Source: Pseudomonas sp. FP198 (lineage in GTDB: Bacteria > Pseudomonadota > Gammaproteobacteria > Pseudomonadales > Pseudomonadaceae). From it: 64,000 nucleotides of DNA. The stretch lies in contig NZ_CP117452.1 of NCBI RefSeq assembly GCF_030687895.1, positions 3,675,501-3,739,500 of the forward strand. Direction: 5' to 3'. The position numbers were made by a program, and so were the translations under genes. The notes under the pieces were generated by a model. That model was not told the origin of the DNA. It worked only from the letters and a program-made list of their open reading frames with translations, and made no database searches. Of the stretch, positions 40,672-55,342 are shown piece by piece (position 1 is the stretch's first letter; every line of letters starts with the position of its first letter).

Positions 40672-41544
40672 CTACCCTTTCGCCTTAATCGCATACATCC
40701 CACCCGCAATCACCAGACATGCTCCCACCACCGTCCAGGTGTCGGGCAGTTCACCGAATACCAGCAGCCCAATCAGTGTGGCGAACACCAGCAAGGTGTA
40801 GTTGAACGGCTGGAGTGTGGCCGCCGTTGCGTACTTCAGCGCCTGAAGTAACAGCAGCTGGGCCACGACGCCGGTAACTGAAAGCACCGCGATCAGCCCC
40901 CATTGCGCCGGGCTCGGTGTTACCCAACCTGGAAGACCCGAAAAGGTGATCGCTATCGCGCCGAAAAACCCCATGTAAAGCATGTTCGTAGCGAACGAGT
41001 CCTTCCGACTGATTCGACGGGTCAGCACGCTGAAAATGGCGAAACCCAGGGCAGACAACAGCGGGATAAGCGCCGCGAGTTGAAAGACACCGGTGCCGGG
41101 GCGAAGGATAATCAGCGTACCGGTGAAGCCGATGGCGGCGGCAATCCATCGACGCACACCAATGAACTCACCGAGAAACGCCCCCGCCAACGCCAGTGTC
41201 ATCAAGGGGAACACCGTATACAGGGCGTGCATCTCAGCGAGCCCCAGATAGCGCAGCCCGAGTCCAAACAAGGCACTTTCACCCACTCCGATCAATGCAC
41301 GGATGACCTGCTGGTAAGGATGGTGGCTTCGCCAGGCAGCCCGCAAGCTGTCCTGATAAATGCAAAAGCCGACAGCGAAACCCAGGAAGACCCAATAGCG
41401 CACCATGACCAGCTGCGCGATCGGGAGATCTTTGACCAGCACTTTGGTGACCCCATCCTGCGCGGCAAAGATCAGCATCGATAGAAGGCACAGGACGATA
41501 CCTGACCGCGATCGCGGGGCGTCATGATCATGCACCGCGCGCAT
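40672..41544 (-). CDS. EamA/DMT family transporter
   Basis: A 290-residue inner-membrane protein with ten helices in two EamA repeats (first SMLIFAAQDGVTKVLVKDL, second SALGFAIFSVLTRRISRKD). The family exports metabolites or takes up small solutes; the substrate is unknown. Its start lies 17 bases inside the upstream PutA-type regulator gene, so the two form a coupled pair. This position next to the putative proline betaine island suggests it might move an amino acid such as proline (inference). Confidence 0.88.
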   Translation of the reverse strand: MRAVHDHDAPRSRSGIVLCLLSMLIFAAQDGVTKVLVKDLPIAQLVMVRYWVFLGFAVGFCIYQDSLRAAWRSHHPYQQVIRALIGVGESALFGLGLRYLGLAEMHALYTVFPLMTLALAGAFLGEFIGVRRWIAAAIGFTGTLIILRPGTGVFQLAALIPLLSALGFAIFSVLTRRISRKDSFATNMLYMGFFGAIAITFSGLPGWVTPSPAQWGLIAVLSVTGVVAQLLLLQALKYATAATLQPFNYTLLVFATLIGLLVFGELPDTWTVVGACLVIAGGMYAIKAKG

Positions 41545-41812
41545 CAGCCTCGGCCGGCGTTATCGGGGCGGTGTCCTTGGATAGATTGCTATCTGCGCGC
41601 CGCCTCGCGATGCTGTGGCGCAACCGATCACGCTCCAGCGCTTCAACGGCCACGAGTGCTTCGACACCGGCCCCGGCTTCGACTTTCTCAATGAAGTTCA
41701 AAATGGCCTTTTTCATGAACCAGTGCGAGGTCCGGTCCAGCCTGGCCGATGCCGACTTCAGCCTGGCGCGCGTTTCCTCATCCAATTTGATACCCAGTGT
41801 CGTGACTGTCAT
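41528..41812 (-). CDS. Stand-alone PutA-type ribbon-helix-helix DNA-binding protein
   Basis: A 94-residue protein. Residues 1-45 align without gaps to the N-terminal ribbon-helix-helix domain of E. coli PutA, the bifunctional proline oxidase/repressor. The DNA-contact residues known in PutA recur at the same numbers: Thr5, Gly7, Lys9, Thr28 and His30 (Pro29 is Ser). The oxidase and dehydrogenase domains are absent; the remaining 50 residues are polar and charged. The ATG at 41812 is preceded by a GTG codon. It overlaps the EamA gene by 17 bases. A put-type GTTGCA hexamer lies about 100 bases upstream. Probably a dimeric repressor (inference). Confidence 0.78.
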   Translation of the reverse strand: MTVTTLGIKLDEETRARLKSASARLDRTSHWFMKKAILNFIEKVEAGAGVEALVAVEALERDRLRHSIARRRADSNLSKDTAPITPAEADARGA

Positions 41813-41876
41813 CACTCAGCCCCTGAATAGAAACAAGCCCTCGCCCTACGTACACATGCGAGAGGACTCAGCAGGC

Positions 41877-41905
41877 GGTGCCCTTGACGCTAGACCAAGG
41901 GCACC
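41877..41905 (-). terminator. Hairpin downstream of the betaine-binding protein gene
   Basis: A perfect 10-bp stem (GGTGCCCTTG / CAAGGGCACC) with a 9-base loop lies 33 bases past the binding-protein stop. It lacks a U-tract, so it may be a weak terminator or mRNA-stabilising element, and it is also in the promoter region of the PutA-type regulator. Confidence 0.5.
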
Positions 41906-41909
41906 GGAC

Positions 41910-41915
41910 TGCAAC
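41910..41915 (-). promoter_or_regulatory. PutA-operator-like hexamer GTTGCA
   Basis: GTTGCA on the minus strand, the core recognised by PutA in enteric bacteria, lies upstream of the PutA-type regulator gene. A single hexamer in about 125 bases has a several-percent chance of occurring at random. Confidence 0.25.
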
Positions 41916-41937
41916 AACTATCGGATAACAACGTCCA

Positions 41938-42837
41938 TTACTGGGCTGGCGCAGCGGAAGCAGTCTGGCTGCCAAACATCGCTTCGAAGCGCGGCTTGTT
42001 CGCCGCGTAGTACTCGGCAACCACCTTGTCCGCCGTGCTTTCGCGGGCATCCGCCATCAACTTCTCAAGGTCCGCTTTCGGGATCTTGAAGTTGGCGAAG
42101 AAGCGCGCCACGTCAGGATGCTCGGCGCTGAAACCTTTGCGGGCAATCGCGTGGATCTGCTCGGCGCCACCGAATATCTGCTTCGGATCATCCAGATAAC
42201 GCAGCGGCCATTTGGCAAACATCCAGTGAGGACTCCAGGCGTTGACCAACGCCCACTTGTCTCGTTTGATGTTGCGATCCAGTTCACTGAGCATGCCGGA
42301 CTCTGAAGACGCAACCATCTTGTAGCCGTCGAGCTTGTATTCCTTGATGGCTTTTTCCGTCAGCTTGTACTGACCATTGCCCACTTCCGAGGTGAGAATC
42401 TTGCCGCCGAGCTTCTCCCGCACTTCGGGTTTGTTGAGGTCTTCGACACTGGCAATCTCACTGGTAGGAATCGAGGTGGGCACCGCCATGCCGATCCGGC
42501 CTTCATACAGTACGCCGAGGTCTTCGAGCTTGTCCTTGTACTTGTCATAGAAGGACTTGTGGGTGCTCGGCAGCCAGACCATCGGAATCAAATCGATATT
42601 GCCGTTGGCCAGTGCCTGGAACTGGATGCCGATGTCGGCCAGCACCAACTTGACCGGTTGCTTGAGATGATCCTGCAACGCGGTGTTCGCCAGCTTCACG
42701 GCGATTTCCGTGTCCGACCAGTTCACCCAGCCGATACGGATGGGCGCCGGTTCCTCGGCTTGAGCGATCAGGCTGCCGCAGGCCAAAGCAAGGCCGGCAA
42801 ACCAGCCGATAAAAGTTTTACGGGGTAACGTCATCAT
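41938..42837 (-). CDS. Betaine/choline-type ABC transporter substrate-binding protein
   Basis: A 299-residue OpuAC/ProX-family periplasmic protein with a signal peptide (RKTFIGWFAGLALACGSLIAQA) followed by EEPAPIRIGWVNWSDTEIA. Family members bind quaternary amines in an aromatic cage; Trp residues at WVNWSD, MVWLPSTH and AWSPHWMFAKWP fit such a cage. The ATG at 42837 has GGAG 6 bases upstream, unlike the ATG at 42843. The matching permease and ATPase genes lie 7 kb away at 49814-51882, beyond the catabolic genes. It probably feeds a betaine to the Rieske demethylase. Confidence 0.87.
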   Translation of the reverse strand: MMTLPRKTFIGWFAGLALACGSLIAQAEEPAPIRIGWVNWSDTEIAVKLANTALQDHLKQPVKLVLADIGIQFQALANGNIDLIPMVWLPSTHKSFYDKYKDKLEDLGVLYEGRIGMAVPTSIPTSEIASVEDLNKPEVREKLGGKILTSEVGNGQYKLTEKAIKEYKLDGYKMVASSESGMLSELDRNIKRDKWALVNAWSPHWMFAKWPLRYLDDPKQIFGGAEQIHAIARKGFSAEHPDVARFFANFKIPKADLEKLMADARESTADKVVAEYYAANKPRFEAMFGSQTASAAPAQ

Positions 42838-43010
42838 GTGCATCTCCGCAGACTGTATTAATAGTTATTGGCAGGGCAGCAGAAGCATTCATTTTCCATC
42901 ACGACCGCGGGCGGCCATGGGTAAGTTCTAATTATGAAATCACGGCTATCGAGTGTGGCTTACCCTCCTCCGCCCGTTGGCGGGCTGACTCTTTCAAGGT
43001 TGTCGATAAA

Positions 43011-43107
43011 CCCGTGGCGAGGGAGCTTGCTCCCGCTGGGTCGCGCAGCGGCCCCAGGTTTTGCGGCTGCTGCGCAGCCGAGCGGGAGCAAGCTCCCTCG
43101 CCACGGG
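43011..43107. repeat. REP pair (GTGGCGAGGGAGC family), inverted
   Basis: The left copy begins CCCGTGGCGAGGGAGCTTGC and the right ends GCTCCCTCGCCACGGG, between the ETF alpha stop and the binding-protein start. Likely the 3' boundary of the etf transcript. Confidence 0.9.
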
Positions 43108-43129
43108 TTCGTCGTTTTACGTCGTGAAT

Positions 43130-44065
43130 TCACAATGCCCTTTCGAGTGCCGGCAACGCCTCGAACAGATCCGCCACCAACAGGTAATCCGCCACCTGGG
43201 CAATCGGTGCCTCGGCGTCCTGGTTGATCGCGACGATGACCTTTGAACCGCTCATGCCCGCCAGATGTTGTATGGCGCCACTGATGCCTGCGGCAATGTA
43301 AAGCTTTGGCGCGACGATCTTGCCCGTCTGCCCGACCTGCAAATCGTTGGGTGCGAACCCCGAATCAACAGCAGCGCGGGAGGCCCCCACGGCACCGCCG
43401 AGCTTGTCGGCCACCCGCTCGATCAGGGCGAAGTTCTCTTTGCTCTGCATCCCGCGGCCACCGGAAACGACGACGCGGGCGCTCGACAGATCGGGCCGTT
43501 CGTTGGCCGTCAGTTGTTCGCTCACCAAACGTACGTTGCTGGCGCTTTGTCCGCCGTCCACTGCAACCACTTCGCAGGGTTTGTCATGGGATAACGCTTG
43601 GGCGAATGCCGAAGCGCGCACCGTGAGCAACTTGATCGGATCCAGCGACTGCACCGTGGCGATGGCATTGCCGGCATAAACAGGCCGCTGGAAAGTGTCC
43701 GCCGAGACGATGTGGGTAACGTCCGAAAGCATGCCCACATCCAGGCTCGCCGCGACCCGTGGCAGCAGATTGCGGCCCATGCTGCTGGCATCGGCAACGA
43801 CGTGTGTATACCCCTCGGCCACCAGCGAAGTGATCAGCGGCTGGACGTTTTCAGCCAGGGCATTTTCGAACACCGCCGCTTGTGCGAGCAGCACCCGGTC
43901 CAGGCCCTGGGCCAGCGCTGCCTGTTGCGCCACGGCCGAGGCGTCCGTCCCGCCCATCACCAGCAGATCCGTTTCAGCACCCAACGCCACGGCGGCGCTC
44001 ACGGCGCTCCGGGTGCCTGCCGTCAGTTGACCGGCACTGTGCTCGGCGATCACCAATGTGCGCAT
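43130..44065 (-). CDS. Electron transfer flavoprotein alpha subunit (island-specific paralog)
   Basis: A 311-residue ETF alpha subunit. The C-terminal FAD-binding domain is unmistakable: [32 protein letters not shown] and [22 protein letters not shown] carries electrons from flavin dehydrogenases to ETF:quinone oxidoreductase in the membrane. The ATG shares its A with the TGA of the beta subunit (TGATG), so subunits are made together. Its place beside a DgcA-like demethylase suggests dedicated service to that enzyme, as in the dimethylglycine system. Confidence 0.92.
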
Positions 44066-44814
44066 CAAATCACCCCCGCAACGGTTTTCAGTTTATCCAC
44101 CAACTCGACCACCGAAGCGACCGTGATCCCTGCTTTGCGTACAGGTGGAGCGACAACACCCAGCAATCGAGCGTGTTGCTTCACGCTCGCACCCAAGCTC
44201 TCGGCGGCAATGGTTTCCAAGGGCTTTTTCTTGGCTTTCATGATGTTCGGCAACGAGGCGTAGCGCGGTTGATTCAGGCGCAGATCGCAGGTCACCACGG
44301 CCGGCGTCGAGAGCGCGACCACCTGGCTGCCCCCATCGACCTCACGCTCGACGAGCCATTGCCCGTCGACATGATTGACTGCCGAGGCGTAAGTGGCCTG
44401 ACCGCTGCCGATCAACTGCGCGACCATTTGCCCGACCTGGTTGTTTTCCTGGTCGATCGCCTGCTTGCCGAACAGGATCAGTTGCGGTTGTTCCTGATCA
44501 ATCACTTTGCTCAGGTACTTGGCGACGTTGAGCGGCTCGAGAGTCGCGCTGGTCTCGACCAGAAGCGCCCGGTCCGCGCCAAGTGCCAACGCCGTGCGCA
44601 GCTGTTCCTGGGCGGCCGAAGTGCCCACCGAGACCACCACCACTTCGGTTGCCAGCCCTTTCTCCTTAAGGCGAATCGCCTCTTCCACCGCGATCTCGCA
44701 GAACGGATTCAAGGCCATTTTCACGCCGTTGAGCTCAACGTCCGAACCGTCAGCCTTCACCCGGACTTTCACATTCGGGTCGATGGCGCGCTTTACCGCA
44801 ACGAGCACTTTCAT
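44065..44814 (-). CDS. Electron transfer flavoprotein beta subunit (island-specific paralog)
   Basis: A 249-residue ETF beta subunit, starting [19 protein letters not shown], with the AMP-binding-fold segment [13 protein letters not shown] and the ETF recognition-loop region [19 protein letters not shown]. The partner for dehydrogenases is contacted through that loop. It is the first gene of the etf pair and divergent from the DgcA-like demethylase, with a 209-base shared promoter region containing an 11-bp motif repeated at the TetR promoter. The longer reading to 44937 runs into that region and was rejected. Confidence 0.92.
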
Positions 44815-44928
44815 GGTCTTTGCACAGCCCCCTCGCACTTGGATCGATGCCGGATGAATGGCGCGCCCGCGCCGGATCACCCCTGTTTCGACTGGATGGT
44901 AATCCTGGTTTTTCCCCCGCGCAAGAAA

Positions 44929-44957
44929 AATGTACACCTATGTCTCAATCGTTGACA
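44929..44957. promoter_or_regulatory. Candidate operator and -35 of the demethylase/etf promoter
   Basis: AATGTACACCT at 44929-44939 recurs exactly in the TetR/ABC promoter region (49647-49657). A TTGACA -35-like box at 44952-44957 follows on the plus strand, with only a weak -10 (TACCGT) at 44975. Confidence 0.5.
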
Positions 44958-45023
44958 CACATGAACATTGCACATACCGTTATGTCAAAACCAAGCCTGA
45001 TGTTCTGTTCCCGGAGCAACACC

Positions 45024-47060
45024 ATGTCCAGCGATCCTCTGCTGCAGCCCTACAAGATCAAGCATCTGACCCTCAAGAATCGGATCATGACCACCTCCCA
45101 CGAGCCCGCGTATCCCGTGGATGGCATGCCGAAGGATTTGTACCGCGCCTATCACGTCGAACGGGCGAAGGCCGGCGTTGCGTTGACCATGACCGCGGGC
45201 TCCGCTGCGGTTTCACGGGACAGCCCGCCGGTGTTCAACAACGTGCTGGCGTACAAGGACGAGGTGGTCAAATGGATGAAGGACCTGACCGACGAATGCC
45301 ACGAACACGGTGCTGCGGTGATGATTCAACTGACCCACCTGGGGCGGCGCACGCGCTGGGACAAGGCGGATTGGCTGCCGGTCGTCTCGCCGTCCCATCG
45401 CCGCGAAGCGTCCCACCGGGCCTTCCCGAAAAAACTGGAAGACTGGGACATCGACCGGATCATCAAGGACTACGTGGACGCCGCCGAACGCATGAAGGCC
45501 GCCGGTCTCGACGGTTTGGAACTGCAGGCCTACGGGCATCTCATGGATCAATTCTGGTCGCCACTGACCAACGATCTCGACGGCCCCTACGGTGGTTCGC
45601 TGGAAAACCGCATGCGCTTCACTTTCGATGTGTTGCGCGGCATCCGCCAGCGTTGCGGTGAGGACTTCCTGCTGGGGGTGCGCTATACCGGCGACGAAGA
45701 CCTGCCGGGCGGCTTCGGCGCCAGCGATGGCCTGCAGATTTCCCACATGCTCAAGGACAGCGGGCTGGTGGATTTCCTCAACGTCGTACGCGGGCACATC
45801 GATACCGATGCCGGCCTCACCGACGTGATCCCGATCCAGGGCATGCGCAACTCACCGCACCTGGATTTTGCTGGCGAGATCCGCTCCGCCACCGGTTTCC
45901 CGACTTTTCATGCGGCGAAGATCCCGGACGTCGCCACGGCGCGACACGCCATCGCCTCGGGCAAGGTCGACATGATCGGCATGACCCGCGCGCACATGAC
46001 CGACCCGCATATCGTGCGCAAGATCATCGAAAAACGTGAAGAAGAGATCCGCCCCTGCGTTGGCGCCAACTATTGCCTGGACCGCATCTATCAGGGCGGC
46101 GCCGCGTATTGCATCCACAACGCCGCCACCGGGCGCGAAACCACCATGCCCCACGAAATCCCCAAGGCGCCGCTCAAGCGCAAGGTGGTGGTGATCGGCA
46201 CCGGCCCGGCGGGCCTGGAGGCGGCACGGGTGGCCGGCGAGCGCGGCCATGACGTCACCGTGTTCGAAGTGGCCGACCAGCCAGGCGGGCAGATCCGCTT
46301 GACCGCGCAGAGCGAGCGCCGCCGCGAGATGATCAGCATCATCGACTGGCGCATGGCGCAATGTGAACGCCTCGGCGTGAAGTTCCAGTTCAACACCTGG
46401 GCCGAGGCCGATACGGTGATGGCCGAGGAACCGGACGTGGTGATCGTCGCCACGGGCGGTCTGCCCCACACCGAGGTGCTCAAGCAAGGCAATGAGCTGG
46501 TGGTGTCGACCTGGGACATCATTTCCGGCGATATCAAGCCCGGCCAGAACGTGCTGATCTTCGACGATGCCGGCGACCACGCGGCGCTACAGGCGGCCGA
46601 GATCATCGCCAGCAGCGGCGCGAAACTGGAAATCGTCACGCCCGACCGGTCGTTCGCACCGGAGGTGATGGCGATGAACCTGGTGCCTTACATGCGCAGC
46701 CTGCAAGACCTGAACGTCACCTTCACCGTCACCTATCGGGTCGACTCCGTGGAAAAACGCGACGGTCAACTGGTTGCGCACTTCGGCAGCGACTACGGCC
46801 AGGTGCACAAGCAGCGGGTGGTCGACCAGGTGGTGGTCAACCACGGCACCCTGCCCCTGGACGATTTGTACTTTGAGTTGCGGCCGCATTCGAGCAACAA
46901 CGGCGCGGTCGAGCAGCACAACCTGATCGCCGGGAAAACCCAGAATATCGTGACCAACCCCACAGGCCGCTTCCAGCTGTTCCGGATCGGCGACGCGGTG
47001 TCGGCGCGCAATACCCATGCGGCCATCTACGATGCGCTGCGGTTGGTCAAGGACATCTGA
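45024..47060 (+). CDS. DgcA-like flavin N-demethylase (probable N-methylproline / betaine demethylase)
   Basis: A 678-residue old-yellow-enzyme/trimethylamine-dehydrogenase family flavoprotein. Residues 1-345 form an FMN barrel (VMIQLTHLGRRTRWD, LDGLELQAYGHLMDQFWSP), then an Fe-S motif, then an FAD/NAD-like domain (GTGPAGLEA at 392-400). It closely resembles dimethylglycine demethylase DgcA in layout and length. In the Fe-S motif, Cys345, Cys351 and Cys363 remain but the second ligand position is Ala348. The ATG at 45024 has GGAG 8 bases upstream. Substrate is probably a mono- or di-N-methylated amine made by the Rieske enzyme nearby; N-methylproline is the best guess. Confidence 0.82.
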   Translation: MSSDPLLQPYKIKHLTLKNRIMTTSHEPAYPVDGMPKDLYRAYHVERAKAGVALTMTAGSAAVSRDSPPVFNNVLAYKDEVVKWMKDLTDECHEHGAAVMIQLTHLGRRTRWDKADWLPVVSPSHRREASHRAFPKKLEDWDIDRIIKDYVDAAERMKAAGLDGLELQAYGHLMDQFWSPLTNDLDGPYGGSLENRMRFTFDVLRGIRQRCGEDFLLGVRYTGDEDLPGGFGASDGLQISHMLKDSGLVDFLNVVRGHIDTDAGLTDVIPIQGMRNSPHLDFAGEIRSATGFPTFHAAKIPDVATARHAIASGKVDMIGMTRAHMTDPHIVRKIIEKREEEIRPCVGANYCLDRIYQGGAAYCIHNAATGRETTMPHEIPKAPLKRKVVVIGTGPAGLEAARVAGERGHDVTVFEVADQPGGQIRLTAQSERRREMISIIDWRMAQCERLGVKFQFNTWAEADTVMAEEPDVVIVATGGLPHTEVLKQGNELVVSTWDIISGDIKPGQNVLIFDDAGDHAALQAAEIIASSGAKLEIVTPDRSFAPEVMAMNLVPYMRSLQDLNVTFTVTYRVDSVEKRDGQLVAHFGSDYGQVHKQRVVDQVVVNHGTLPLDDLYFELRPHSSNNGAVEQHNLIAGKTQNIVTNPTGRFQLFRIGDAVSARNTHAAIYDALRLVKDI

Positions 47061-47111
47061 AGCGCGACCGGATCAGGATCCGGCTCTGCATTTGACAAGA
47101 AAATCGGTAAG

Positions 47112-47157
47112 CCCGTGGCGAGGGAGCTTGCTCCCGCTGGGCTGCGCAGCAGACCCG
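47112..47157. repeat. Half REP element (GTGGCGAGGGAGC family)
   Basis: A single copy beginning CCCGTGGCGAGGGAGCTTGC with its GCTGCGCAGC inner stem, but no inverted partner, between the demethylase and VOC genes. Confidence 0.85.
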
Positions 47158-47190
47158 CTTTCGAATTCCCCCAACTGAAAGGAAACCAAG

Positions 47191-47574
47191 ATGTCCGTTT
47201 TCACCCATGTCAGCGTCGGCACCAACAACCTGGCGAAAGCCCGTGCGTTTTATGACGCCACTTTGAAAGAGATCGGCCTCAAGCGCGTCGCCGACCTTGA
47301 TGATGCCGGTTCCATCTGGGGCGCCGACAAACCTTCGTTTTTTGTCCTCAACCCGGCCAACGGCAATCCGGCATCCATCGGCAACGGCGTCACCGTAAGC
47401 TTCGAGGCGCCGAACCGGGCGGCGGTCCGCGCTTTCCACTCCACCGCCCTGGCAAATGGCGGCGTTTGTGAAGGCCTGCCGGGCTCCCGTGGCTGGGCAG
47501 AGAATGCCTACGCGGCTTATGCCCGGGACCTGGATGGGAACAAGCTGGCGGTGTATTGCTTCAAGGCTGAGTAA
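47191..47574 (+). CDS. VOC family (glyoxalase-like) protein
   Basis: A 127-residue vicinal-oxygen-chelate protein: FTHVSVGTNNLAKARAFYD at the start of the first repeat and YAAYARDLDGNKLAVYCF at the end of the second. The family includes glyoxalases, dioxygenases and resistance proteins, so no reaction can be assigned. GAAAGGAA lies before the ATG. It follows the demethylase by 130 bases with a REP half-copy between, so co-transcription is possible. A role in removing reactive aldehyde by-products is speculation. Confidence 0.85.
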   Translation: MSVFTHVSVGTNNLAKARAFYDATLKEIGLKRVADLDDAGSIWGADKPSFFVLNPANGNPASIGNGVTVSFEAPNRAAVRAFHSTALANGGVCEGLPGSRGWAENAYAAYARDLDGNKLAVYCFKAE

Positions 47575-47600
47575 GGCGCTGGGCTAACGTAGGCAAGCAT

Positions 47601-48098
47601 GGCGAATGTGTTGGCCTGCTCGCGAAGGCGGTGGTTCAGTGACGAGGATGTTGGACTGGCTGACGCTTTCGCGAGCAGGCTCGCTCCCACAAGGGATTGT
47701 GGGTTGCACATGCCCTGTGTCTGTCAAAGATTAGAATGTGGGAGCGAGCTTGCTCGCGATAGCGGTGGTTCAGTGACAAGGATGTTGAACTGGCTGACGC
47801 TTTCGCGAGCAAGCTCGCTCCCACAAGGGATTGTGGGTTGCACATGCCCTGTGCCTGTCGAAGATTAGAATGTGGGAGCGAGCCTGCTCGCGAAGGCGGT
47901 GGTTCAGTGACAGGGATGTTGGACTGACGGACGCTTTCGCGAGCAGGCTCGCTCCCACAAGGGATTGTGGGTTGCACATGCCCTGTGTCTGTCAAAGATT
48001 AGAATGTGGGAGCGAGCTTGCTCGCGATGGCGGTGATTGAGTGACAGGGATGTTGGACTGGCTGACGCTTTCGCGAGCAGGCACGCTCCCACAGGCCT
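47601..48098. repeat. Tandem array of 134-bp REP-containing units
   Basis: About four head-to-tail units with a period of exactly 134 bases; the core GTGGGAGCGAGC starts at 47738, 47872 and 48006. Each unit holds a complete inverted REP pair plus a linker beginning ACAAGGGATTGTGGGTTGCA. The first unit has a 4-base deletion in its left REP and the last has a base change (GCAGGCACGCTCC). This array accounts for the whole 534-base gap between the VOC and ProC-like genes. Confidence 0.92.
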
Positions 48099-48108
48099 GA
48101 TCAGTGAA

Positions 48109-48894
48109 TCAGGCTTGAAGGCCCTGGCGGGCGACCGCGGCGCCGGCTTGCAATGCCTTCCCCACCTGCTCCTCGAAATGCCCTTCGGTCATCGCTTGCA
48201 GGGCGGCGGCGGTCACGCCGCGGTAGGCGACCAGGGCGTCGATCATCTGCCGGGCGTCATGGCTGGCCAGCAACTGGCTGCTGTGGACCACGACATTCTT
48301 CGCCGCAAGCTGCGCAATCTCGGCGGGTATGCCGGCCTCCATCGCCTGATTGGCCAGAGCTGTCATGAGCAAGGCTGGAAAGGCCGGGCCGGTGCCGGAA
48401 AGCGCGGAAAGGTAATCAATGAAGTCTTCCTGCTGAACCTCGGCAGCCGTGCCCACGCATTCGAACAAGCGCTGAACCAGGCCTTTAGTCGCCGCATCCA
48501 CCACACCCGCGCAATACCAAGGCGTAAACGACTGCCCGATCTCCACCGCCGCATTGGGCATCGCCCGCAGCACCGTCGAAGCCGAGGTCCGGGCGGCAAT
48601 GGCCTGCGCGGTGATCCCGGCCATCAATGAAATGACTGTCTTGCCAGAAGCGTTGAGGCTCAGGCCGGCGAACTGCTCGGGGCGCACCGCGATGATGATC
48701 ACGTCGCTGCGGTCCACCAGCGCCTGGTTATCCGTGACCAGACAAACGCCTTGTTGCGCCAAAGGATGGACACCCGAGCGATTGGAGATAACCAGGTGAC
48801 CCGCCGGCAACAGCGCCTGCGCCAACACAGCCTTGGCAATCGCCCCGCCCAGCCAGCCCGTTCCGCCAATGATGCCCAGCGTCGGCGCGTTCAT
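48109..48894 (-). CDS. Diverged pyrroline-5-carboxylate reductase (ProC) family protein
   Basis: A 261-residue ProC-family oxidoreductase. The N-terminal NAD(P) site reads LGIIGGTGWLGGAIA and the dimerisation domain contains LSALSGTGPAF, comparable to SGSGPAY of ProC. The canonical SPGGTT substrate loop near the C-terminus is replaced by AYRGVTAAAL, which suggests a different imine or pyrroline substrate. Its ATG overlaps the TGA of the TetR regulator (ATGA). A housekeeping proC would be expected elsewhere. In this island it may reduce a ring intermediate of betaine breakdown (inference). Confidence 0.78.
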   Translation of the reverse strand: MNAPTLGIIGGTGWLGGAIAKAVLAQALLPAGHLVISNRSGVHPLAQQGVCLVTDNQALVDRSDVIIIAVRPEQFAGLSLNASGKTVISLMAGITAQAIAARTSASTVLRAMPNAAVEIGQSFTPWYCAGVVDAATKGLVQRLFECVGTAAEVQQEDFIDYLSALSGTGPAFPALLMTALANQAMEAGIPAEIAQLAAKNVVVHSSQLLASHDARQMIDALVAYRGVTAAALQAMTEGHFEEQVGKALQAGAAVARQGLQA

Positions 48895-49592
48895 TTCCCG
48901 GCCGTCTCTTCAAAGGTTTCCGTCAACGGCACAAAGATCCCCGGCTCTTTTTCGGCATAGCCGAATTTGCCGTAGAAACGATCCAGCTCGCGCTGCTTGG
49001 GTACTTTGCCGGTGAAAATGCTCACGTAATGCGGGATGCGCTGGAAACGCACGGTGATCAACTCGCTGGTGTTCATGGTGATGTAGCCGATCTGGGTCAG
49101 GTAGATCGTCCGGGCCCGTGCGTCGGCACCCTGGCTGTCATAACCAAAGCGCTTGAACATGCTCGCCAGGGCGCCCATTCGCTGCTCGTCGACGATGGCG
49201 ACTTCCTGCGCCACTTCAGCGGACTGGAGCGCCCAGCTGCGCACGGCGAATTCGAATTGCGAATCGAACAATTGAGGGTTGAGCCAGCATTCGAAGACAT
49301 TCAGGATCGCCTCGGAAATGCTCTCGGCGTAGCTCTCGCTTTGCCGGATCAAGCCACCGGTGTTGGTCTCGCGCCAGCGCGACAGCAAAGCCGCCAACAA
49401 CTGCTCACGATCCTCGAAGAACCAATAGAAGCTGGTGCGTGACAATCCCAAACGCTTGGCCAGCGGCATGACCCTGACCGCATCGATACCGGACTCCTTC
49501 AAGGCCTCGTAGGCCGCTTCCAGCCAGCCTTCGGGCGACCCTCGCCAGCCGGCGTCCTGGGCCTTGCCGCGCGCCTTCCCTACCTGGGGCAT
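48891..49592 (-). CDS. TetR family transcriptional regulator of the island
   Basis: A 233-residue TetR-type regulator. The helix-turn-helix is at about residues 38-60 (MPLAKRLGLSRTSFYWFFEDREQLLAAL) and an all-helical ligand domain follows. AAGGTGG precedes the ATG at 49592; the longer reading to 49673 crosses the operator region. It is the first gene of a two-gene operon with the ProC-like gene and is divergent from the ABC/Rieske operon. The shared gap carries repeated GTAC elements, so it probably represses both sides and also the etf/demethylase promoter, where the same 11-bp motif occurs. Confidence 0.87.
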   Translation of the reverse strand: MPQVGKARGKAQDAGWRGSPEGWLEAAYEALKESGIDAVRVMPLAKRLGLSRTSFYWFFEDREQLLAALLSRWRETNTGGLIRQSESYAESISEAILNVFECWLNPQLFDSQFEFAVRSWALQSAEVAQEVAIVDEQRMGALASMFKRFGYDSQGADARARTIYLTQIGYITMNTSELITVRFQRIPHYVSIFTGKVPKQRELDRFYGKFGYAEKEPGIFVPLTETFEETAGK

Positions 49593-49611
49593 CTTGCATC
49601 CACCTTGTTGA

Positions 49612-49664
49612 ACGTACGTAACGCGAATGTACTCGGATGCCCGCCGAATGTACACCTGAGTACA
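49612..49664. promoter_or_regulatory. Candidate TetR operator cluster
   Basis: The palindrome ACGTACGT is at 49612-49619. Two CGAATGTAC direct repeats at 49624-49632 and 49645-49653 start 21 bases apart, two helical turns. An inverted repeat TGTAC-N6-GTACA spans 49649-49664. The 11-mer AATGTACACCT (49647-49657) recurs at 44929. Confidence 0.55.
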
Positions 49665-49813
49665 GTTGCTCAACGCAGCGCGCTGGTGCGCTCGAAGCCA
49701 GCGCAGGATTGATGATCAAAACTCATGAGCCACTGACTTTAAATGGTTTGTCAGCACCGCACGCCCGGATGAGTATCTGCTCCAGGCAAACCAGAACAAA
49801 AACGAGCCGCCTT

Positions 49814-50662
49814 ATGTGGACTGCACAAGAAAAACTCCCGCTGGGTGAGCACATCGCCCGATACGTCGAATGGCTGACCCAACATGGCGCCGATGTCTTC
49901 GACGCCATTTCGCTGTCGCTTTCCGAGGTCATCTCGGTCTTTACCAGCGCCCTGCTCTGGTTCAACCCGCTGGCCCTGATCGGACTGCTGGCCCTCTTCG
50001 CTTATTACATTCAACGCAAGGTAAGCCTGACGCTTTTCGTCGCCCTGTCGTTCCTGTTGATCTTCAACCTGGGCTACTGGCAGGAAACCATGGAAACCCT
50101 GGCCCAGGTGACATTCGCCACGCTGGTGTGCGTCATCATCGGCGTGCCGCTGGGCATCGTCGCGGCGCATCGTCCCTGGTTCTACGCAACCCTGCGACCG
50201 GTGCTCGACCTGATGCAGACCGTCCCGACTTTCGTCTACCTGATCCCGACCTTGACGCTGTTCGGCCTCGGCGTGGTTCCGGGATTGATTTCCACGGTGG
50301 TCTTCGCCATTGCCGCGCCAATCCGCCTGACCTACCTGGGCGTGCGCGATGTGCCTCAAGAACTGATGGACGCCGGCAAAGCCTTCGGCTGCTCACGTCG
50401 CCAGCTGCTGGCACGCATCGAGCTGCCCCATGCGATGCCGAGCATCGCCGCCGGGATTACCCAGTGCATCATGCTGTCGCTGTCGATGGTGGTCATCGCC
50501 GCGCTGGTCGGCGCGGATGGCCTGGGCAAGCCTGTCGTCAACGCCTTGAATACCGCCGATATCGCCATGGGCTTCGAAGCAGGCCTGGCGATCGTGTTGT
50601 TGGCGATCATCCTCGACCGCATCTGCAAGCAGCGCGAAACCGTGAAAAGAGGTGACGCATGA
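49814..50662 (+). CDS. Betaine-type ABC transporter permease
   Basis: A 282-residue ProW/OpuAB-like permease with about six transmembrane helices. The coupling-loop EAA motif reads QELMDAGKAFGCSRRQLL, and the core includes TFVYLIPTLTLFGLGVVPG. It starts MWTAQEKLPL; the longer reading from 49637 covers the operator region. The gene overlaps the ATPase by 4 bases. It probably works with the distant binding protein at 41938-42837. First gene of a likely ABC-Rieske-reductase operon. Confidence 0.9.
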   Translation: MWTAQEKLPLGEHIARYVEWLTQHGADVFDAISLSLSEVISVFTSALLWFNPLALIGLLALFAYYIQRKVSLTLFVALSFLLIFNLGYWQETMETLAQVTFATLVCVIIGVPLGIVAAHRPWFYATLRPVLDLMQTVPTFVYLIPTLTLFGLGVVPGLISTVVFAIAAPIRLTYLGVRDVPQELMDAGKAFGCSRRQLLARIELPHAMPSIAAGITQCIMLSLSMVVIAALVGADGLGKPVVNALNTADIAMGFEAGLAIVLLAIILDRICKQRETVKRGDA

Positions 50663-51882
50663 GCATCATTCGTTTTGAAGACGTCGACGTCATCTTCGCC
50701 AACCGCCCGAAGCCGGCGCTGGAGCTGCTCGACCAGGGTTTTTCGCGCCCGGAGATTCTGCAGCAAACCGGCCTGATCGTCGGCGTGGAGAAGGCCAATC
50801 TAGACATCAACAAAGGTGAAATCTGCGTGCTGATGGGCCTGTCCGGCTCCGGCAAATCGAGCCTGTTGCGCTGCGTCAATGGCTTGAACACGGTGAGTCG
50901 CGGCAAGTTGTTCGTCGAGCACGAGGGCCGACAGATCGACATCGCCGCCTGCACGCCGGCCGAGCTGAAAATGATGCGCACCCGACGCATCGCCATGGTC
51001 TTCCAGAAATTCGCCCTGATGCCCTGGCTGACCGTGCGCGAGAACATCGGTTTCGGCCTCGAAATGCAAGGCCGTCCCGAGAAGGAGCGGCGCAAGCTGG
51101 TCGACGAAAAGCTCGAACTGGTGGGCTTGACCCAATGGCGCAACAAGAAGCCCGACGAGTTGTCCGGCGGCATGCAGCAGCGGGTCGGCCTGGCCCGCGC
51201 CCTGGCGATGGACGCCGATATCCTGCTGATGGACGAACCCTTCTCGGCCCTCGACCCGCTGATCCGCCAAGGCCTGCAGGACGAACTGCTCGATCTGCAG
51301 CGCAAGTTGCACAAGACCATCGTCTTCGTCAGTCATGACCTGGACGAAGCCCTCAAGCTGGGAACACGGATCGCCATCATGAAAGACGGCAAGATCATCC
51401 AGTACAGCAGACCCGAGGAGATCGTGCTGAAGCCGGCCGACGACTACGTGCGCAACTTCGTCGCCCACACCAACCCATTGAATGTGCTCTGCGCGGGAAG
51501 CCTGATGACCCCGTTGGACCAGTGCATATCCGCCCAGGGCGAATATTGCCTGGATACGGTGCAGAACCTCTGGGCTGCGCTGAACGCATCGAAAGAACTG
51601 GCCAGCGTGCGCCGCGGCGCTGCGGCCCAAGCGCTGCAACACTGGAACCGCAACGAGGCCAGCGCGCCCTTGCGCCGCCTGGTCACCTCGGTGCCGGCGG
51701 ATACCGGCATGCGCGAGGCGCTGCGTATCCGCTACGAAACAGGACATCCATTGATCGTGCTCGATAAAGACCAGACCGTCGTCGGTGTACTGGGCGATAC
51801 GGAACTGTACCGCGCACTGCTCGGGCATGACCTGTCGCGCCCGGTTTTGTCCGAGCCATTGTCAGAGCCTGCGGTGGCCTGA
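50659..51882 (+). CDS. Betaine-type ABC transporter ATP-binding protein with C-terminal CBS-like region
   Basis: A 407-residue ProV/OpuAA-like ATPase. Walker A GLSGSGKSS (about 60-68), signature LSGGMQQRVGLARAL, Walker B ILLMDEPFSALDP, and the switch His in FVSHDLDEAL are intact. The C-terminal 120 residues, ending HPLIVLDKDQTVVGVLGD, look like a CBS module, which in OpuA-type systems senses ionic strength. It overlaps the permease (ATGA) and is followed 75 bases later by the Rieske oxygenase. Confidence 0.9.
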   Translation: MSIIRFEDVDVIFANRPKPALELLDQGFSRPEILQQTGLIVGVEKANLDINKGEICVLMGLSGSGKSSLLRCVNGLNTVSRGKLFVEHEGRQIDIAACTPAELKMMRTRRIAMVFQKFALMPWLTVRENIGFGLEMQGRPEKERRKLVDEKLELVGLTQWRNKKPDELSGGMQQRVGLARALAMDADILLMDEPFSALDPLIRQGLQDELLDLQRKLHKTIVFVSHDLDEALKLGTRIAIMKDGKIIQYSRPEEIVLKPADDYVRNFVAHTNPLNVLCAGSLMTPLDQCISAQGEYCLDTVQNLWAALNASKELASVRRGAAAQALQHWNRNEASAPLRRLVTSVPADTGMREALRIRYETGHPLIVLDKDQTVVGVLGDTELYRALLGHDLSRPVLSEPLSEPAVA

Positions 51883-51957
51883 ACAGACGAAACCCGTTTT
51901 CCCTGCAGCACTGCTTGTCCGCCAACCACCGATCATTTGCCTTGAGTGAGATCGACG

Positions 51958-53211
51958 ATGAACCCAACCCTGAAAACCCATCGTGAACTGCTGGCCGACC
52001 GCACCCCGGGCCATGGCATGCCTGGCGGTCTGTTCGGCCGCGAGGATGTTTTTGCAACCGACGTCGATGTGTTTTTTACCAGACACTGGATTCTGGTGGG
52101 GGTCACCAGCGACGTTGCCGAACCCGGCGATGTCTCGACGATCGATATCGGCAAATCCTCGATCATCCTGGTCCGCGACGATGACGAGCATGTGCAGGCG
52201 TTCCGCAATGTCTGCCGTCACCGTGGGGCGCGCTTGAAACAGGCCGGCAAATCGACGGTGGGCATGCTGGTCTGCCCCTATCACCAATGGACGTACGACC
52301 TGGACGGCAGCCTGAAACATGCCGCGCACATGGGCAAGGATTTCGACCCGGGGTGCAAGAGCCTGATCCCGGTCCACACCCGCGTGGTGGGTGCCCACGT
52401 ATTCGTCTGCCTGAGTGACGAGCCGCCGGAAGACATCCTGTACCTCGACCAGGTCATGACCCCGCGTTTCGCTCAGTACGATCTCAGCCATTCGAAGATC
52501 GCCTACGAGTCGGAAATCATCGAGAACGGCAACTGGAAACTGGTGATCGAGAACAATCGCGAGTGTTATCACTGCGCCGCCACTCACCCCGAATTGACCG
52601 CGTCGTTCCTGCCGGAGGACTTCGGCTTCTGCACCGACGGACTGGGCGAGGACTCGCTCCTGGCACTCAAGGAATATCACCAGCGCAACGCCGATACCAG
52701 GCAAGACTGGGAAAACCAAGGCTACCTCTGTGAGGCCGTCGAGCACCTGGGCGAGGACGCGGTGACTCAGTTCCGCACCCAGCGCCTGGCCATCGCCGGC
52801 AACGGCGAATCCCAGACCCTCGATACCCGCGTCGCCTGCACGCGCTTGTTTGGCGACCTCACCCGGCGCGACCTGGGCGACATACACTTGTGGACCCACA
52901 ACTCATGGACCCACATCATGAGCGACCACGCGGTGGTCTCCTACATCATCCCGCTGGCGCCCGATAAAACCCTGGTGCGGACCAAATGGCTGGTGCACGC
53001 CGATGCCATCGAGGGCGTGGACTACCAGGTGGACAGACTGATCGAGGTCTGGGCTGCAACCAATCTTCAAGACGCCAACCTGGTCGGCATCACCCACAGC
53101 GGCACCCAGGACCCGGCCTATTCGCCCGGACCGTTCTCGGCGTTTACCGAAACCTATGTCGACCAGTTTTCTCGCTGGTACGCGGCGCGTCTGGCCGCCC
53201 ATGGCGTGTGA
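51958..53211 (+). CDS. Rieske non-heme iron oxygenase (quaternary amine / proline betaine demethylase type)
   Basis: A 417-residue ring-hydroxylating-type oxygenase of the GbcA/Stc2 class that oxidatively removes an N-methyl group as formaldehyde. Rieske ligands are Cys86, His88, Cys106 and His109 (CRHRG and CPYHQW); mononuclear iron ligands are His205 and His210 (NRECYHCAATHPE) with Asp372 (TNLQDANLV). Similarity to my memory of GbcA is clear but not close, and the surrounding ProC-like and PutA-type genes favour a proline-derived betaine. The ATG at 51958 follows GTGAGATCGACG. Confidence 0.87.
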   Translation: MNPTLKTHRELLADRTPGHGMPGGLFGREDVFATDVDVFFTRHWILVGVTSDVAEPGDVSTIDIGKSSIILVRDDDEHVQAFRNVCRHRGARLKQAGKSTVGMLVCPYHQWTYDLDGSLKHAAHMGKDFDPGCKSLIPVHTRVVGAHVFVCLSDEPPEDILYLDQVMTPRFAQYDLSHSKIAYESEIIENGNWKLVIENNRECYHCAATHPELTASFLPEDFGFCTDGLGEDSLLALKEYHQRNADTRQDWENQGYLCEAVEHLGEDAVTQFRTQRLAIAGNGESQTLDTRVACTRLFGDLTRRDLGDIHLWTHNSWTHIMSDHAVVSYIIPLAPDKTLVRTKWLVHADAIEGVDYQVDRLIEVWAATNLQDANLVGITHSGTQDPAYSPGPFSAFTETYVDQFSRWYAARLAAHGV

Positions 53212-53220
53212 GGGATGGAC

Positions 53221-54339
53221 ATGACGACCTACGAAAAGCTGACGCGCCTCCAACGTTTTACCGACCCGACGACCTGGGCCGCCTATGGCTCGCAATGGCA
53301 CAGCGGCGAGCAGAAAACCTTGTCATGTTGCGCCGTGCGCCAGGAAACCCATGACGTGAAGACGTTCGTCTTCCAGTGCGCGGACTTCACTGCGTTGAGC
53401 TTCGAACCGGGGCAATTCATCACGCTGTCGCCGGTCATCGGTGGGCAAACCATCGCGCGCTGCTACACGCTGTCGTCCTCCCCCACGCGCCCGTTCACCT
53501 TTTCGATTACGGTCAAGCGCGTGCCGGGTGGCGTGGTCTCGAACTGGCTGCATGACCATCTCGAACCGGGAGACAACCTCAGGGCATCCGGCCCGGCGGG
53601 CAGTTTCACACCGGTGGGCCATCCGGCGACAAAACTGCTGTACCTGTCGGCCGGTTCCGGCGTGACGCCCTTGATGTCGATGACCCGCGCCGCCTGCGAC
53701 ATGGCGGCCAATCTCGACATCGTGTTCCTGCACAGCGCCCGCACGCCGGCGGACATCATTTTCCATGACGAACTGACGCGAATGCAGGCCGATATGCCCG
53801 GCCTGCGGGTCATCGGTATTTGCGAAGGGCTTGGCGCTGCCAGCCAGTGGCAGCAGCCGATCGGTCGGCTCGATCTGCCTCTGTTGAGCCAGCAAGTGCC
53901 GGACTACCACGAGCGGGAAATCTTCACCTGTGGGCCCCAAGGCTACATGGAAGCGGTCAAGGCGCTGCTCAGGGAAGCGGCGTTCGATTTTCGCCACTAT
54001 CATCAGGAAAGCTTCGATATCGCGGTGCTGAATGAGGAACCGCTGATCGAGCAGGCCCCTTCACCCGACCCGCAACAGATGTTCACCGTCACCCTGTCGC
54101 GTTCGGGCAAGACCTTCAGCATGTCCGGCAACCAGACCGTGCTGAGCGCGGCGAAAAAAGCCGGGGCGATCGTGCCCTCCTCGTGCAGCCAGGGCATCTG
54201 TGGCACCTGCAAGACCGCCCTGCTGGAAGGCACGGTGGACATGAACCACAACGGCGGCATCCGCCAACGGGAGATCGACAAAGGCCTGCGCTTGCTCTGC
54301 TGCAGCAAGCCGACCTCCAATCTGGTCATCGATCTCTAG
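53221..54339 (+). CDS. Ferredoxin-NAD(P)H reductase component of the Rieske demethylase
   Basis: A 372-residue hybrid reductase of GbcB type. In order: FAD domain with RCYTLSS at 80-86, NAD(P) domain with GSGVTP at 145-150 and CGPQGYM at 237-243, and a C-terminal plant-type 2Fe-2S ferredoxin (Cys322, Cys327, Cys330 and Cys360 or 361). It supplies electrons to the preceding oxygenase, 9 bases upstream. GAGGG at 53210-53214 is 6 bases from the ATG at 53221 and abuts the ATG at 53215, so the second is preferred. Confidence 0.9.
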   Translation: MTTYEKLTRLQRFTDPTTWAAYGSQWHSGEQKTLSCCAVRQETHDVKTFVFQCADFTALSFEPGQFITLSPVIGGQTIARCYTLSSSPTRPFTFSITVKRVPGGVVSNWLHDHLEPGDNLRASGPAGSFTPVGHPATKLLYLSAGSGVTPLMSMTRAACDMAANLDIVFLHSARTPADIIFHDELTRMQADMPGLRVIGICEGLGAASQWQQPIGRLDLPLLSQQVPDYHEREIFTCGPQGYMEAVKALLREAAFDFRHYHQESFDIAVLNEEPLIEQAPSPDPQQMFTVTLSRSGKTFSMSGNQTVLSAAKKAGAIVPSSCSQGICGTCKTALLEGTVDMNHNGGIRQREIDKGLRLLCCSKPTSNLVIDL

Positions 54340-54427
54340 CCGTCACGCCTGATCTGCTAGTCACTGCGCGCAGGCTTCTGCACAATCACCCTGCGCCTGA
54401 CCCCAAACAAGACAGTGACCCAGGCCG

Positions 54428-55342
54428 ATGAAACTGCAACCGTTGCCGCCGCTCAACAGCCTGGTGGCGTTCGAGGCCGCTGCTCGCCACCGGAGTTTCA
54501 CCGTGGCGGCTCGTGAACTGAACGTCACCCAGGGCGCCATCAGCCGCCAGATACGCCTGCTCGAAGATTATCTGGGCACGGCGCTGTTCATCCGCACGAC
54601 CCGTGAAATCAACCTCACTGCGACAGGCAGCCAGTACCACGAAAGCATTCGCGATACGTTGCAGCAGATCGCCCGCGCCACGGCTGGCGTTCGGCATTGG
54701 CAAGGCGCGCAGCAAGTCACCGTGGTCACCAGTACGGCGATGGCATCCCTGTGGCTGCTCCCGCTTGTTTCGGAGTTTCAGCGCCAGCACGAAGAGATCG
54801 ACCTGCGCATCATCGCCACCGACCAGGTCGAGGACTTTTCCCGGCTCGATTGCGATCTGGCGCTGTATTACTGCAGCACACCGCCCAACAACATGAAGGT
54901 CACCGCGCTGTTCAGCGAAGAGATTTTCCCGGTATGCAGCCCCGCGTACCTGGCGCAGCATCCCGAGGCCGGCAGGCTCGAACAGCTCGGCGCCTGCACC
55001 TGGTTATGGCTGGAGGACCAGCATCGGGACTGGATCGGCTGGAAAGAATGGTTCCGACGCCTAGGCCACCAGGCGCCAGAGCCTCGTCGGCGGATCAACA
55101 TCAACAGCTACTCGATGCTGATCCAGTCGGCGCTGGCCGGGCAAGGTGTGGCCCTGGCCTGGTCGAGGTTACTCGGCGACCACTTGCAGACCGGCCACCT
55201 TGTTCGCCCGACCTCCAGCCTCTTGCGCACCGATGCGCAGTTTTGCCTGCTGGAACCCTTGGGGCGGGTGCCGAACCGGCAAAGTGTCAATCGCTTCCGC
55301 GAATGGCTGATGACTTATCTTGCGCAGACGGAGGGTGCCTGA
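54428..55342 (+). CDS. LysR family transcriptional regulator (GcvA-like) downstream of the demethylase
   Basis: A 304-residue LysR protein: MKLQPLPPLNSLVAFEAAARH with helix-turn-helix FTVAARELNVTQGAISRQIRLLE, typical of the GcvA subgroup, then a substrate-binding-like effector domain. It lies 88 bases after the reductase in the same direction and may be co-transcribed. It is a second candidate regulator of the island besides the TetR protein. The effector is unknown; an island substrate or product is plausible. Confidence 0.87.
   Translation: MKLQPLPPLNSLVAFEAAARHRSFTVAARELNVTQGAISRQIRLLEDYLGTALFIRTTREINLTATGSQYHESIRDTLQQIARATAGVRHWQGAQQVTVVTSTAMASLWLLPLVSEFQRQHEEIDLRIIATDQVEDFSRLDCDLALYYCSTPPNNMKVTALFSEEIFPVCSPAYLAQHPEAGRLEQLGACTWLWLEDQHRDWIGWKEWFRRLGHQAPEPRRRININSYSMLIQSALAGQGVALAWSRLLGDHLQTGHLVRPTSSLLRTDAQFCLLEPLGRVPNRQSVNRFREWLMTYLAQTEGA

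What the first reader, a model, noticed from the sequence alone, without database searches (positions are those of the whole stretch)
40672..55342. Putative proline betaine (stachydrine) catabolic island, built from parts of the choline-degradation toolkit
Seen: a Rieske oxygenase with full ligand set, its hybrid reductase, a DgcA-like flavin demethylase, a dedicated ETF pair, a betaine-type ABC transporter, a diverged ProC paralog, a PutA-type DNA-binding protein, and TetR and LysR regulators within 15 kb. Known: GbcAB and DgcA-type enzymes strip methyl groups from glycine betaine and dimethylglycine, and Stc2-type Rieske enzymes plus DgcA-like demethylases turn proline betaine into proline. 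Inference: the two proline-linked genes (ProC-like, PutA-type RHH) point to a proline-derived betaine rather than glycine betaine. Alternatives are hydroxyproline betaine, homostachydrine or carnitine derivatives.
Basis: partly seen in the sequence, partly recalled or inferred. Interest (0 to 1): 0.82.

Follow-up and report, generated by a model that had tools for sequence, protein, structure and literature searches.

The report
Proline-betaine demethylation cluster with unusual oxygenase
A Pseudomonas genome carries a gene cluster that most likely strips the methyl groups from the plant osmolyte proline betaine to make proline; the second-step enzyme is a known type, but the first-step enzyme belongs to a separate branch whose function has apparently not been assigned.

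Summary
The genes are real. The 'DgcA-like' flavoenzyme is HpbA/StcD (N-methylproline demethylase) by sequence: 79% to annotated HpbA and StcD, 43% to the genome's own DgcA. The genome has a separate GbcA and DgcA, no Stc2-type Rieske, no HpbD, and PutA. The layout (Rieske + reductase, HpbA, ETF, ABC, TetR, ProC-like) matches the Paracoccus hpb cluster.

The surprise is the Rieske enzyme: neither GbcA (37%) nor Stc2/HpbB (38-40%) but a third clade, near dgcA-linked relatives; joining it with Stc2 is rejected (p-AU 0.002, post hoc). In 249 genomes of the genus, 12 of 13 with a close homologue carry hpbA (35 of 236 others do). In the seven loci looked at, Stc2-like paralogues sit with hydroxyproline genes. 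One column, seven residues after an iron ligand (Phe/Tyr or Leu), follows HpbA or DgcA linkage in both lineages, but a control pairing also gave one column. A TetR-type operator upstream of hpbA is conserved from Pseudomonas to rhizobia; a weak copy precedes the Rieske operon. Hydroxyproline betaine is not excluded. No biochemistry. New variant of a known pathway.

The parts
40672..41544 (-). EamA/DMT-family transporter; neighbour conserved in some relatives, role unknown
   Evidence: Pfam EamA; 62-89% homologues in 5 of the 20 fetched Pseudomonas stretches
41528..41812 (-). free-standing PutA-type ribbon-helix-helix DNA-binding protein
   Evidence: Pfam PutA_1st; 55% over 53 aa to the N-terminus of the genome's own PutA
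41938..42843 (-). OpuAC-type substrate-binding protein of a betaine ABC transporter
   Evidence: Pfam OpuAC 210.7 bits; homologue in 13 of the 20 related Pseudomonas loci that hold hpbA
43130..44065 (-). EtfA, dedicated electron-transfer flavoprotein alpha
   Evidence: Pfam ETF/ETF_alpha; 55-56% to the EtfA of R. etli stcD and Paracoccus hpbA clusters
44065..44814 (-). EtfB, dedicated electron-transfer flavoprotein beta
   Evidence: Pfam ETF; 58-61% to EtfB of the same reference clusters
44929..44946 (-). putative TetR operator, first of a facing pair in the etfB/hpbA intergenic region
   Evidence: 25.6-bit site; such a pair recurs upstream of hpbA in Pseudomonas and rhizobia
44952..44969 (+). 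putative TetR operator, second of the pair; contains TTGACA (possible -35)
   Evidence: 29.8 bits, best site in the window; the core pattern without mismatch occurs only at this pair in the genome
45024..47060 (+).
   Evidence: 79.2% to Paracoccus pantotrophus hpbA, 78.7% to R. etli stcD; 43% to own DgcA
47191..47574 (+). glyoxalase/dioxygenase-fold protein, function unknown
   Evidence: Pfam Glyoxalase 27.2 bits; 75-96% homologues after hpbA in several relatives
48109..48894 (-). ProC-like imine reductase paralogue with YRGVTAA where ProC reads SPAGTTEAA
   Evidence: Pfam P5CR_dimer; 36-42% to homologues in the Paracoccus and R. etli clusters; motif
48891..49592 (-). TetR-family regulator, probably of this cluster
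   Evidence: Pfam TetR_N; 55-68% to the TetR beside hpbA/stcD in Paracoccus, R. etli, S. meliloti
49647..49664 (-). weaker putative TetR operator in the tetR/transporter intergenic region
   Evidence: 15.9 bits; five shuffles reach 9.1-18.2; a site of 14 bits or more beside tetR also in 6 of 18 relatives
49814..50662 (+). ABC transporter permease
   Evidence: Pfam BPD_transp_1
50659..51882 (+). ABC transporter ATPase
   Evidence: Pfam ABC_tran
51958..53211 (+). Rieske oxygenase of a third group-Vb clade (not GbcA, not Stc2); proposed proline-betaine demethylase
   Evidence: trees; 390 bits against NF058607 cut-off 670
53215..54339 (+). FAD/2Fe-2S reductase of the oxygenase
   Evidence: Pfam FAD_binding_6, NAD_binding_1, Fer2
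54428..55342 (+). LysR-family regulator
   Evidence: Pfam HTH_1/LysR_substrate; 85-92% homologue after the reductase in 6 of the 11 fetched window-type loci, and 87-88% in L017 and L018

Best explanation
This is a Pseudomonas version of the hpb/stc pathway. Proline betaine is taken up through the OpuAC-type ABC transporter. The Rieske oxygenase with its reductase hydroxylates one N-methyl group, which leaves as formaldehyde, giving N-methylproline. HpbA with its own ETF pair removes the second methyl group, giving proline, which PutA (encoded elsewhere) oxidises. The TetR protein represses hpbA through a facing operator pair and probably also the transporter-Rieske-reductase operon. The Rieske enzyme is not the Stc2/HpbB type but a separate clade, near dgcA-linked enzymes; it shares with Stc2-type enzymes an aromatic residue close to the iron-binding motif where GbcA and the dgcA-linked enzymes have Leu, which needs two changes on the tree (their direction is not known). 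Shown by sequence: gene identities, clade, recurring operators, co-occurrence with hpbA. Inferred: every reaction, substrate and regulatory step.
For: HpbA/StcD identity about 79%. Paracoccus cluster with the same parts, including ProC-like, TetR and ETF. Separate GbcA at 812 bits over the 670 cut-off, window Rieske 390; separate DgcA; PutA 2524 bits. Close Rieske homologues (76% or more) occur with hpbA in 12 of 13 genomes versus 35 of 236 others; all window-type homologues (56% or more) in 13 of 20. In 12 of those 20 genomes (own included) hpbA lies within about 15 kb on the same contig (positions). 16 of 25 sister-group loci show DgcA (61-66% to own DgcA), none HpbA; 13 of 45 window-clade loci show HpbA (66-98%). 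Residue F221: aromatic in 177 of 177 window-clade and 129 of 129 Stc2-group proteins, Leu in 123 of 123 GbcA, Leu/Ile in 25 of 25 sister proteins, near-copies included. Operator upstream of hpbA in 58 of 60 sequences.
Against: No activity data. Burkholderiales members of the clade sit beside hydroxyproline genes or a DddP-like protein, without hpbA within the 10 kb held on each side, so the clade may accept other substrates. 7 of 20 genomes with a window-type Rieske lack hpbA, and 20 of 47 hpbA genomes have neither a window-type nor a Stc2-like Rieske. Stc2-like Rieskes also go with hpbA (20 of 42 genomes; 3 of the 7 stretches). The F221 pattern is one column; the control pairing also gave one, and L087 breaks it. 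In the first tree the dgcA-linked rows are not one clade. The operator before the Rieske operon is within the range of shuffles. Genomes are related, so the association test overstates independence.
Confidence: 0.74

Rival explanations
1. The main substrate is hydroxyproline betaine (or both proline and hydroxyproline betaine); the product 4-hydroxyproline feeds a hydroxyproline pathway elsewhere in the genome.
For: Clade relatives lie near DHDPS-like, FAD-oxidase and aldehyde dehydrogenase genes (all three in 10 of 45 loci, 11 if the 30-46% hits of L039 count) or a proline-racemase-family gene (4 of 45); one 82% homologue (G151, L144) has both the triad and hpbA. The own genome has a proline-racemase-family protein at 463 bits, 73% to the Paracoccus one. 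That such a triad marks hydroxyproline catabolism is stated in PMC4113996 (passages read).
Against: The triad is absent from the window cluster and from 10 of 11 other fetched window-type Pseudomonas stretches, while the Stc2-like loci carry it (all three genes in 6 of 7; in the seventh one gene, at the edge of the stretch). No HpbD orthologue in the genome (best 37% over part).
Confidence: 0.16
2. The Rieske enzyme works on another quaternary compound (pipecolate betaine, or a compound handled with the DddP-like protein) and merely shares the locus with HpbA.
For: A DddP-like protein lies near the clade's Rieske gene in 8 of 45 loci (NCBIfam DddP 360-394 bits in the two tested, under the cut-off of 600). 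A subclade without hpbA exists.
Against: No DddP-like hit in the window; 12 of 13 close homologues go with hpbA; permease, ATPase, Rieske and reductase genes are nearly contiguous.
Confidence: 0.07
3. A second, redundant glycine-betaine pathway.
For: The best NCBIfam model for the Rieske is GbcA; some sources name clade members 'glycine betaine catabolism A'.
Against: Below the GbcA cut-off (390 of 670), outside the GbcA clade, GbcA and DgcA elsewhere, flavoenzyme is HpbA not DgcA.
Confidence: 0.03

Closest known systems
hpb cluster of Paracoccus (proline/hydroxyproline betaine catabolism)
   Same: HpbA (79%), ETF pair, ABC transporter, TetR, ProC-like protein, Rieske plus reductase; one operator copy upstream of hpbA
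   Different: Rieske only 40% and in another clade; no hpbD and no cupin gene in the window cluster; glyoxalase-fold protein and PutA-type RHH gene instead
R. etli stcD locus and its S. meliloti counterpart
   Same: StcD 79%, TetR 63-68%, operator pair upstream; the S. meliloti record carries no annotation, so its naming is mine
   Different: no Rieske hit in the two fetched stretches (26 and 32 kb)
Stc2 stachydrine demethylase (PDB 3vca)
   Same: iron ligands, Asn of group Vb, Phe at Stc2 position 216
   Different: 38% identity, separate clade; joint clade rejected at p-AU 0.002
GbcA glycine betaine monooxygenase
   Same: group-Vb Rieske family and ligands
   Different: 37% identity; 390 against cut-off 670 bits; Leu where this one has Phe; a true GbcA is elsewhere in the genome

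Membership tests
HpbA/StcD N-methylproline demethylase | high identity over full length to annotated HpbA and StcD, and nearer to them than to DgcA | tested here: met
   79.2% and 78.7% over 677 aa; 43% to own DgcA
HpbA/StcD N-methylproline demethylase | N-demethylation of N-methylproline | not testable with these tools
   needs enzyme assay
Stc2/HpbB Rieske demethylase | falls in the Stc2/HpbB clade | tested here: not met
   separate supported clades; p-AU 0.002 on a quick tree, group chosen after seeing the first trees
Stc2/HpbB Rieske demethylase | aromatic residue at Stc2 position 216 | tested here: met
   F221; that this residue defines the family is my inference
GbcA | NCBIfam NF058607 curated cut-off 670 bits | tested here: not met
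   390 bits; own GbcA 812. HpbB of Paracoccus has 489
group Vb quaternary-amine Rieske oxygenases | Asn where CntA has Tyr203, plus iron ligands | tested here: met
   N204 (Stc2 N199), H209, H214, D376; group definition from passages of PMC7948474, numbering tied through the Cys pairs named in PMC10952381 (passages)
hpb/stc gene cluster | hpbA with ETF pair, TetR, ABC transporter, ProC-like gene, Rieske and reductase | tested here: met
hpb/stc gene cluster | hpbD betaine epimerase and cupin gene | tested here: not met
   no hpbD orthologue in genome; no cupin hit in window

The most novel reading that the evidence does not exclude
Glycine-betaine and proline-betaine specificity separated twice among Rieske demethylases: once between GbcA and Stc2/HpbB, and once between an unstudied dgcA-linked line and the window's hpbA-linked line, with the same Leu/aromatic exchange near the iron site in both. 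Which state came first is open.
Probability: 0.45. Interest if true: 0.6.

Novelty: new variant of a known kind. Interest (0 to 1): 0.45.

Why it matters
Proline betaine is a common plant osmolyte (recalled); in S. meliloti it is described as a seed-exuded compound that enhances competitiveness for root colonisation (passage in PMC12239276). If right, a Rieske clade whose members are named as generic dioxygenase, Rieske family protein or GbcA in the listing gets a function, with a one-residue prediction that can be tested, and a recurring TetR-type operator gives a simple marker for the regulon.

Tried and rejected
Rejected: Stc2 orthology of the Rieske; GbcA orthology; 'DgcA' for the flavoenzyme. 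Fe-S ligand pattern as a difference between HpbA and DgcA: both read CVGANYC, so dropped. Sequence link of the window chemoreceptor to structure 6d8v (by recall the S. meliloti McpX sensor): only E=0.008, so not claimed. My first automatic ORF clustering of neighbourhoods was poor because of shadow frames; replaced by tblastn. My first reading of the own GbcA frame was on the wrong strand; mended.

Literature: searches of the open library showed, in titles and abstract starts, no paper on this Rieske clade or on proline betaine use by such a Pseudomonas locus; most listed papers were not opened. Passages of PMC8079746 report GbcAB and DgcAB induction by root exudates and do not mention this locus. 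The two key papers (Zhao 2013, Kumar 2014) are not held and could describe a relative of this enzyme.

Rows dropped: L149_W31 and L087 from the groups; 11 locus rows (L080, L082, L084, L085, L086, L087, L088, L090, L091, L093, L096) and the Paracoccus HpbB row were outside the groups and are given; the 52% hpbA-like match in G181 was left out of the 47 hpbA genomes, the partial 90% match in G221 was kept.
Full report
Setting. The window is G000:C1:3675501-3739500 of a 5.86 Mb single-contig genome. The nearest named relatives by the Rieske protein are Pseudomonas brassicacearum and Pseudomonas sp. Q11, 91%, so I take the genus as Pseudomonas.

Second step. The flavoenzyme at 45024-47060 is 79.2% identical over 677 aa to Paracoccus pantotrophus 'hpbA: N-methyl-L-proline N-demethylase' and 78.7% to R. 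etli 'stcD: N-methylproline demethylase', against 43% to the genome's next best match at C1:487255. That one lies about 12 kb from the canonical gbcA; I take it as DgcA from identity and position and did not test it against a curated model. The Paracoccus region has hpbD, reductase, Rieske, LysR, an FAD enzyme, a ProC-like protein, ABC genes, TetR, hpbA, a cupin and etfBA. Identities to the window: TetR 55%, EtfB 58%, EtfA 56%, ProC-like 36%, Rieske 40%, reductase 39%. So the ProC-like gene belongs to the known cluster. The homologues found read Y-[RK]-G-[VT]-T-A-A in 36 of 36 loci where the segment aligned, some loci being one genome twice; the own ProC reads SPAGTTEAA there. That this loop binds substrate in ProC is recalled. 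The function is unknown; I guess an imine-repair role.

First step. The Rieske protein keeps all ligands but is 37% to own GbcA, 38% to Stc2, 40% to HpbB, while Stc2 and GbcA are 48% to each other. Trees of 88, 57 and 55 rows put it in its own clade (SH-aLRT 100; bootstrap/SH-aLRT 100/99; SH-aLRT 100). Next to it stand rows from loci with DgcA: 16 of the 25 such loci show a DgcA (61-66% to own DgcA, 41-44% to HpbA) and none an HpbA, while 13 of 45 window-clade loci show an HpbA (66-98%). These sister rows form one group with moderate support (83/93; 94) but fall into more than one branch. Forcing Stc2 and window clades together is rejected, p-AU 0.002, a test chosen after seeing trees and run on a quick tree.

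Residue test. Used were the best 120 listed proteins of each of three searches plus locus rows. Of 105 columns in which each of four groups (thinned to 27, 69, 18 and 72 rows) has one residue at 80% or more, 80 are the same in all, 5 follow phylogeny, 1 follows the proposed function (Stc2 F216, window F221), 1 follows the control pairing, 18 fit none. Unthinned, F/Y is 129 of 129 in the Stc2 group and 177 of 177 in the window clade; L is 123 of 123 in GbcA; L/I is 25 of 25 in the sister group. By neighbour gene, DgcA-linked loci are L/I in 17 of 17, HpbA-linked F/Y in 27 of 28 (L087 has L), and of two loci with both kinds one has F and one L. The tree needs 2 changes, with four actinobacterial Tyr rows counted as aromatic; it is unrooted, so gain and loss cannot be told apart. 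Given the one control column, this is a hypothesis, not proof, and that the residue lines the pocket is not shown.

Distribution. In 249 genomes of the genus hpbA (79% or more) is in 47, window-type Rieske (56% or more) in 20, Stc2-like Rieske (51-55% to HpbB) in 42. Overlap with hpbA: 12 of 13 for homologues of 76% or more (Fisher p 6e-9), 13 of 20 for all window-type, 20 of 42 for Stc2-like (p 2e-6); 20 of 47 hpbA genomes have neither. Kinship between genomes inflates these p-values. Of the 20 window-type genomes, 12 (own included) have hpbA within about 15 kb, G210 has it on another contig, 7 lack it. I fetched 20 stretches chosen by me from these genomes. In 7 with a Stc2-like gene, DHDPS-like, FAD-oxidase and aldehyde dehydrogenase genes are near in 6 and the first alone, at the edge, in the seventh; G101 also has an HpbD homologue (65%); 3 of the 7 hold hpbA too. 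In 11 with a window-type gene, hpbA is near in all (the reason for choosing them) and the triad is present in 1. PMC4113996 (passages) gives that triad as part of the hydroxyproline route. This suggests a division of labour, but 10 of 45 clade loci, in Burkholderiales and some rhizobia, do carry the triad.

Regulation. Upstream of hpbA, 58 of 60 sequences (all but L052 and L054; some are one genome twice) have a site within 4 mismatches of TTGACACATATGTACATT, in Pseudomonas and rhizobia mostly with a second facing copy, in Paracoccus one copy. In the window the two best sites are this pair (29.8 and 25.6 bits); the third (15.9) lies between tetR and the permease gene. Five mononucleotide shuffles reach 9.1-18.2, so the third is weak by itself. 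A site of 14 bits or more lies beside tetR, apart from the hpbA pair, in 7 of 19 sequences including the window, and none of the sites of 14 bits or more in about 410 kb lies inside a mapped gene. Genome-wide, GACANNNRTGWACATT occurs without mismatch only at the hpbA pair; 12 further places have one mismatch, against 1 for the reversed control pattern, and I did not look at their surroundings. That the TetR protein binds these sites is inferred from their company. From permease to reductase the genes are nearly contiguous, so one operon is likely. P. brassicacearum has an extra LysR gene between ATPase and Rieske and an adhI-like gene after hpbA; the window has neither.

Downstream. PutA is present (2524 bits). 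HpbD is not (best 37% over part). The genome has three ring-hydroxylating alpha subunits: GbcA, the window's, and one with 84 bits to the GbcA model, so no Stc2 type. A proline-racemase-family protein is present, 73% to that of Paracoccus. Hence proline betaine is the most likely substrate and hydroxyproline betaine an open second one.

Verdict. A known pathway in a variant form whose first enzyme comes from a clade without assigned function in what I could see; interesting mainly for the possible parallel split of specificity.

Noticed in passing
window 38508-40451 and 37206-38237: dCache chemoreceptor (318 bits to PDB 6mni_A) and an AraC/DJ-1-type regulator just left of the cluster; receptor homologues (91-94%) lie near hpbA in G160 and G010, a regulator homologue (89%) in G010, so they may be part of betaine sensing.
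   Followed up: partly
G138, G060, G185, G222, G242: Stc2-like Rieske matches with one TGA inside the matched stretch and an open frame of about 700-770 aa; cause not examined.
   Followed up: no
L097:16444-17667 and L099:14373-15653: DddP-like M24-family protein next to the window-clade Rieske in Paraburkholderia, Caballeronia and Rhizobium; below the DddP cut-off in the two tested (360-394 of 600 bits), role unknown.
   Followed up: partly
20 of 47 genomes of the genus with hpbA: hpbA without any window-type or Stc2-like Rieske; in the two looked at (G005, G010) TetR, ProC-like and binding-protein genes are there too. Perhaps use of N-methylproline alone or of GbcA for the first step.
   Followed up: no
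L061, L069, L078, L055: Rieske proteins of the dgcA-linked branch score 454-496 bits against the GbcA cut-off of 670, so the model would not name them GbcA although the first three have a DgcA gene nearby.
   Followed up: partly
window 41528-41812: Free-standing copy of the PutA DNA-binding domain, 55% to that of the own PutA; it could compete with PutA at put operators. Not tested.
   Followed up: partly
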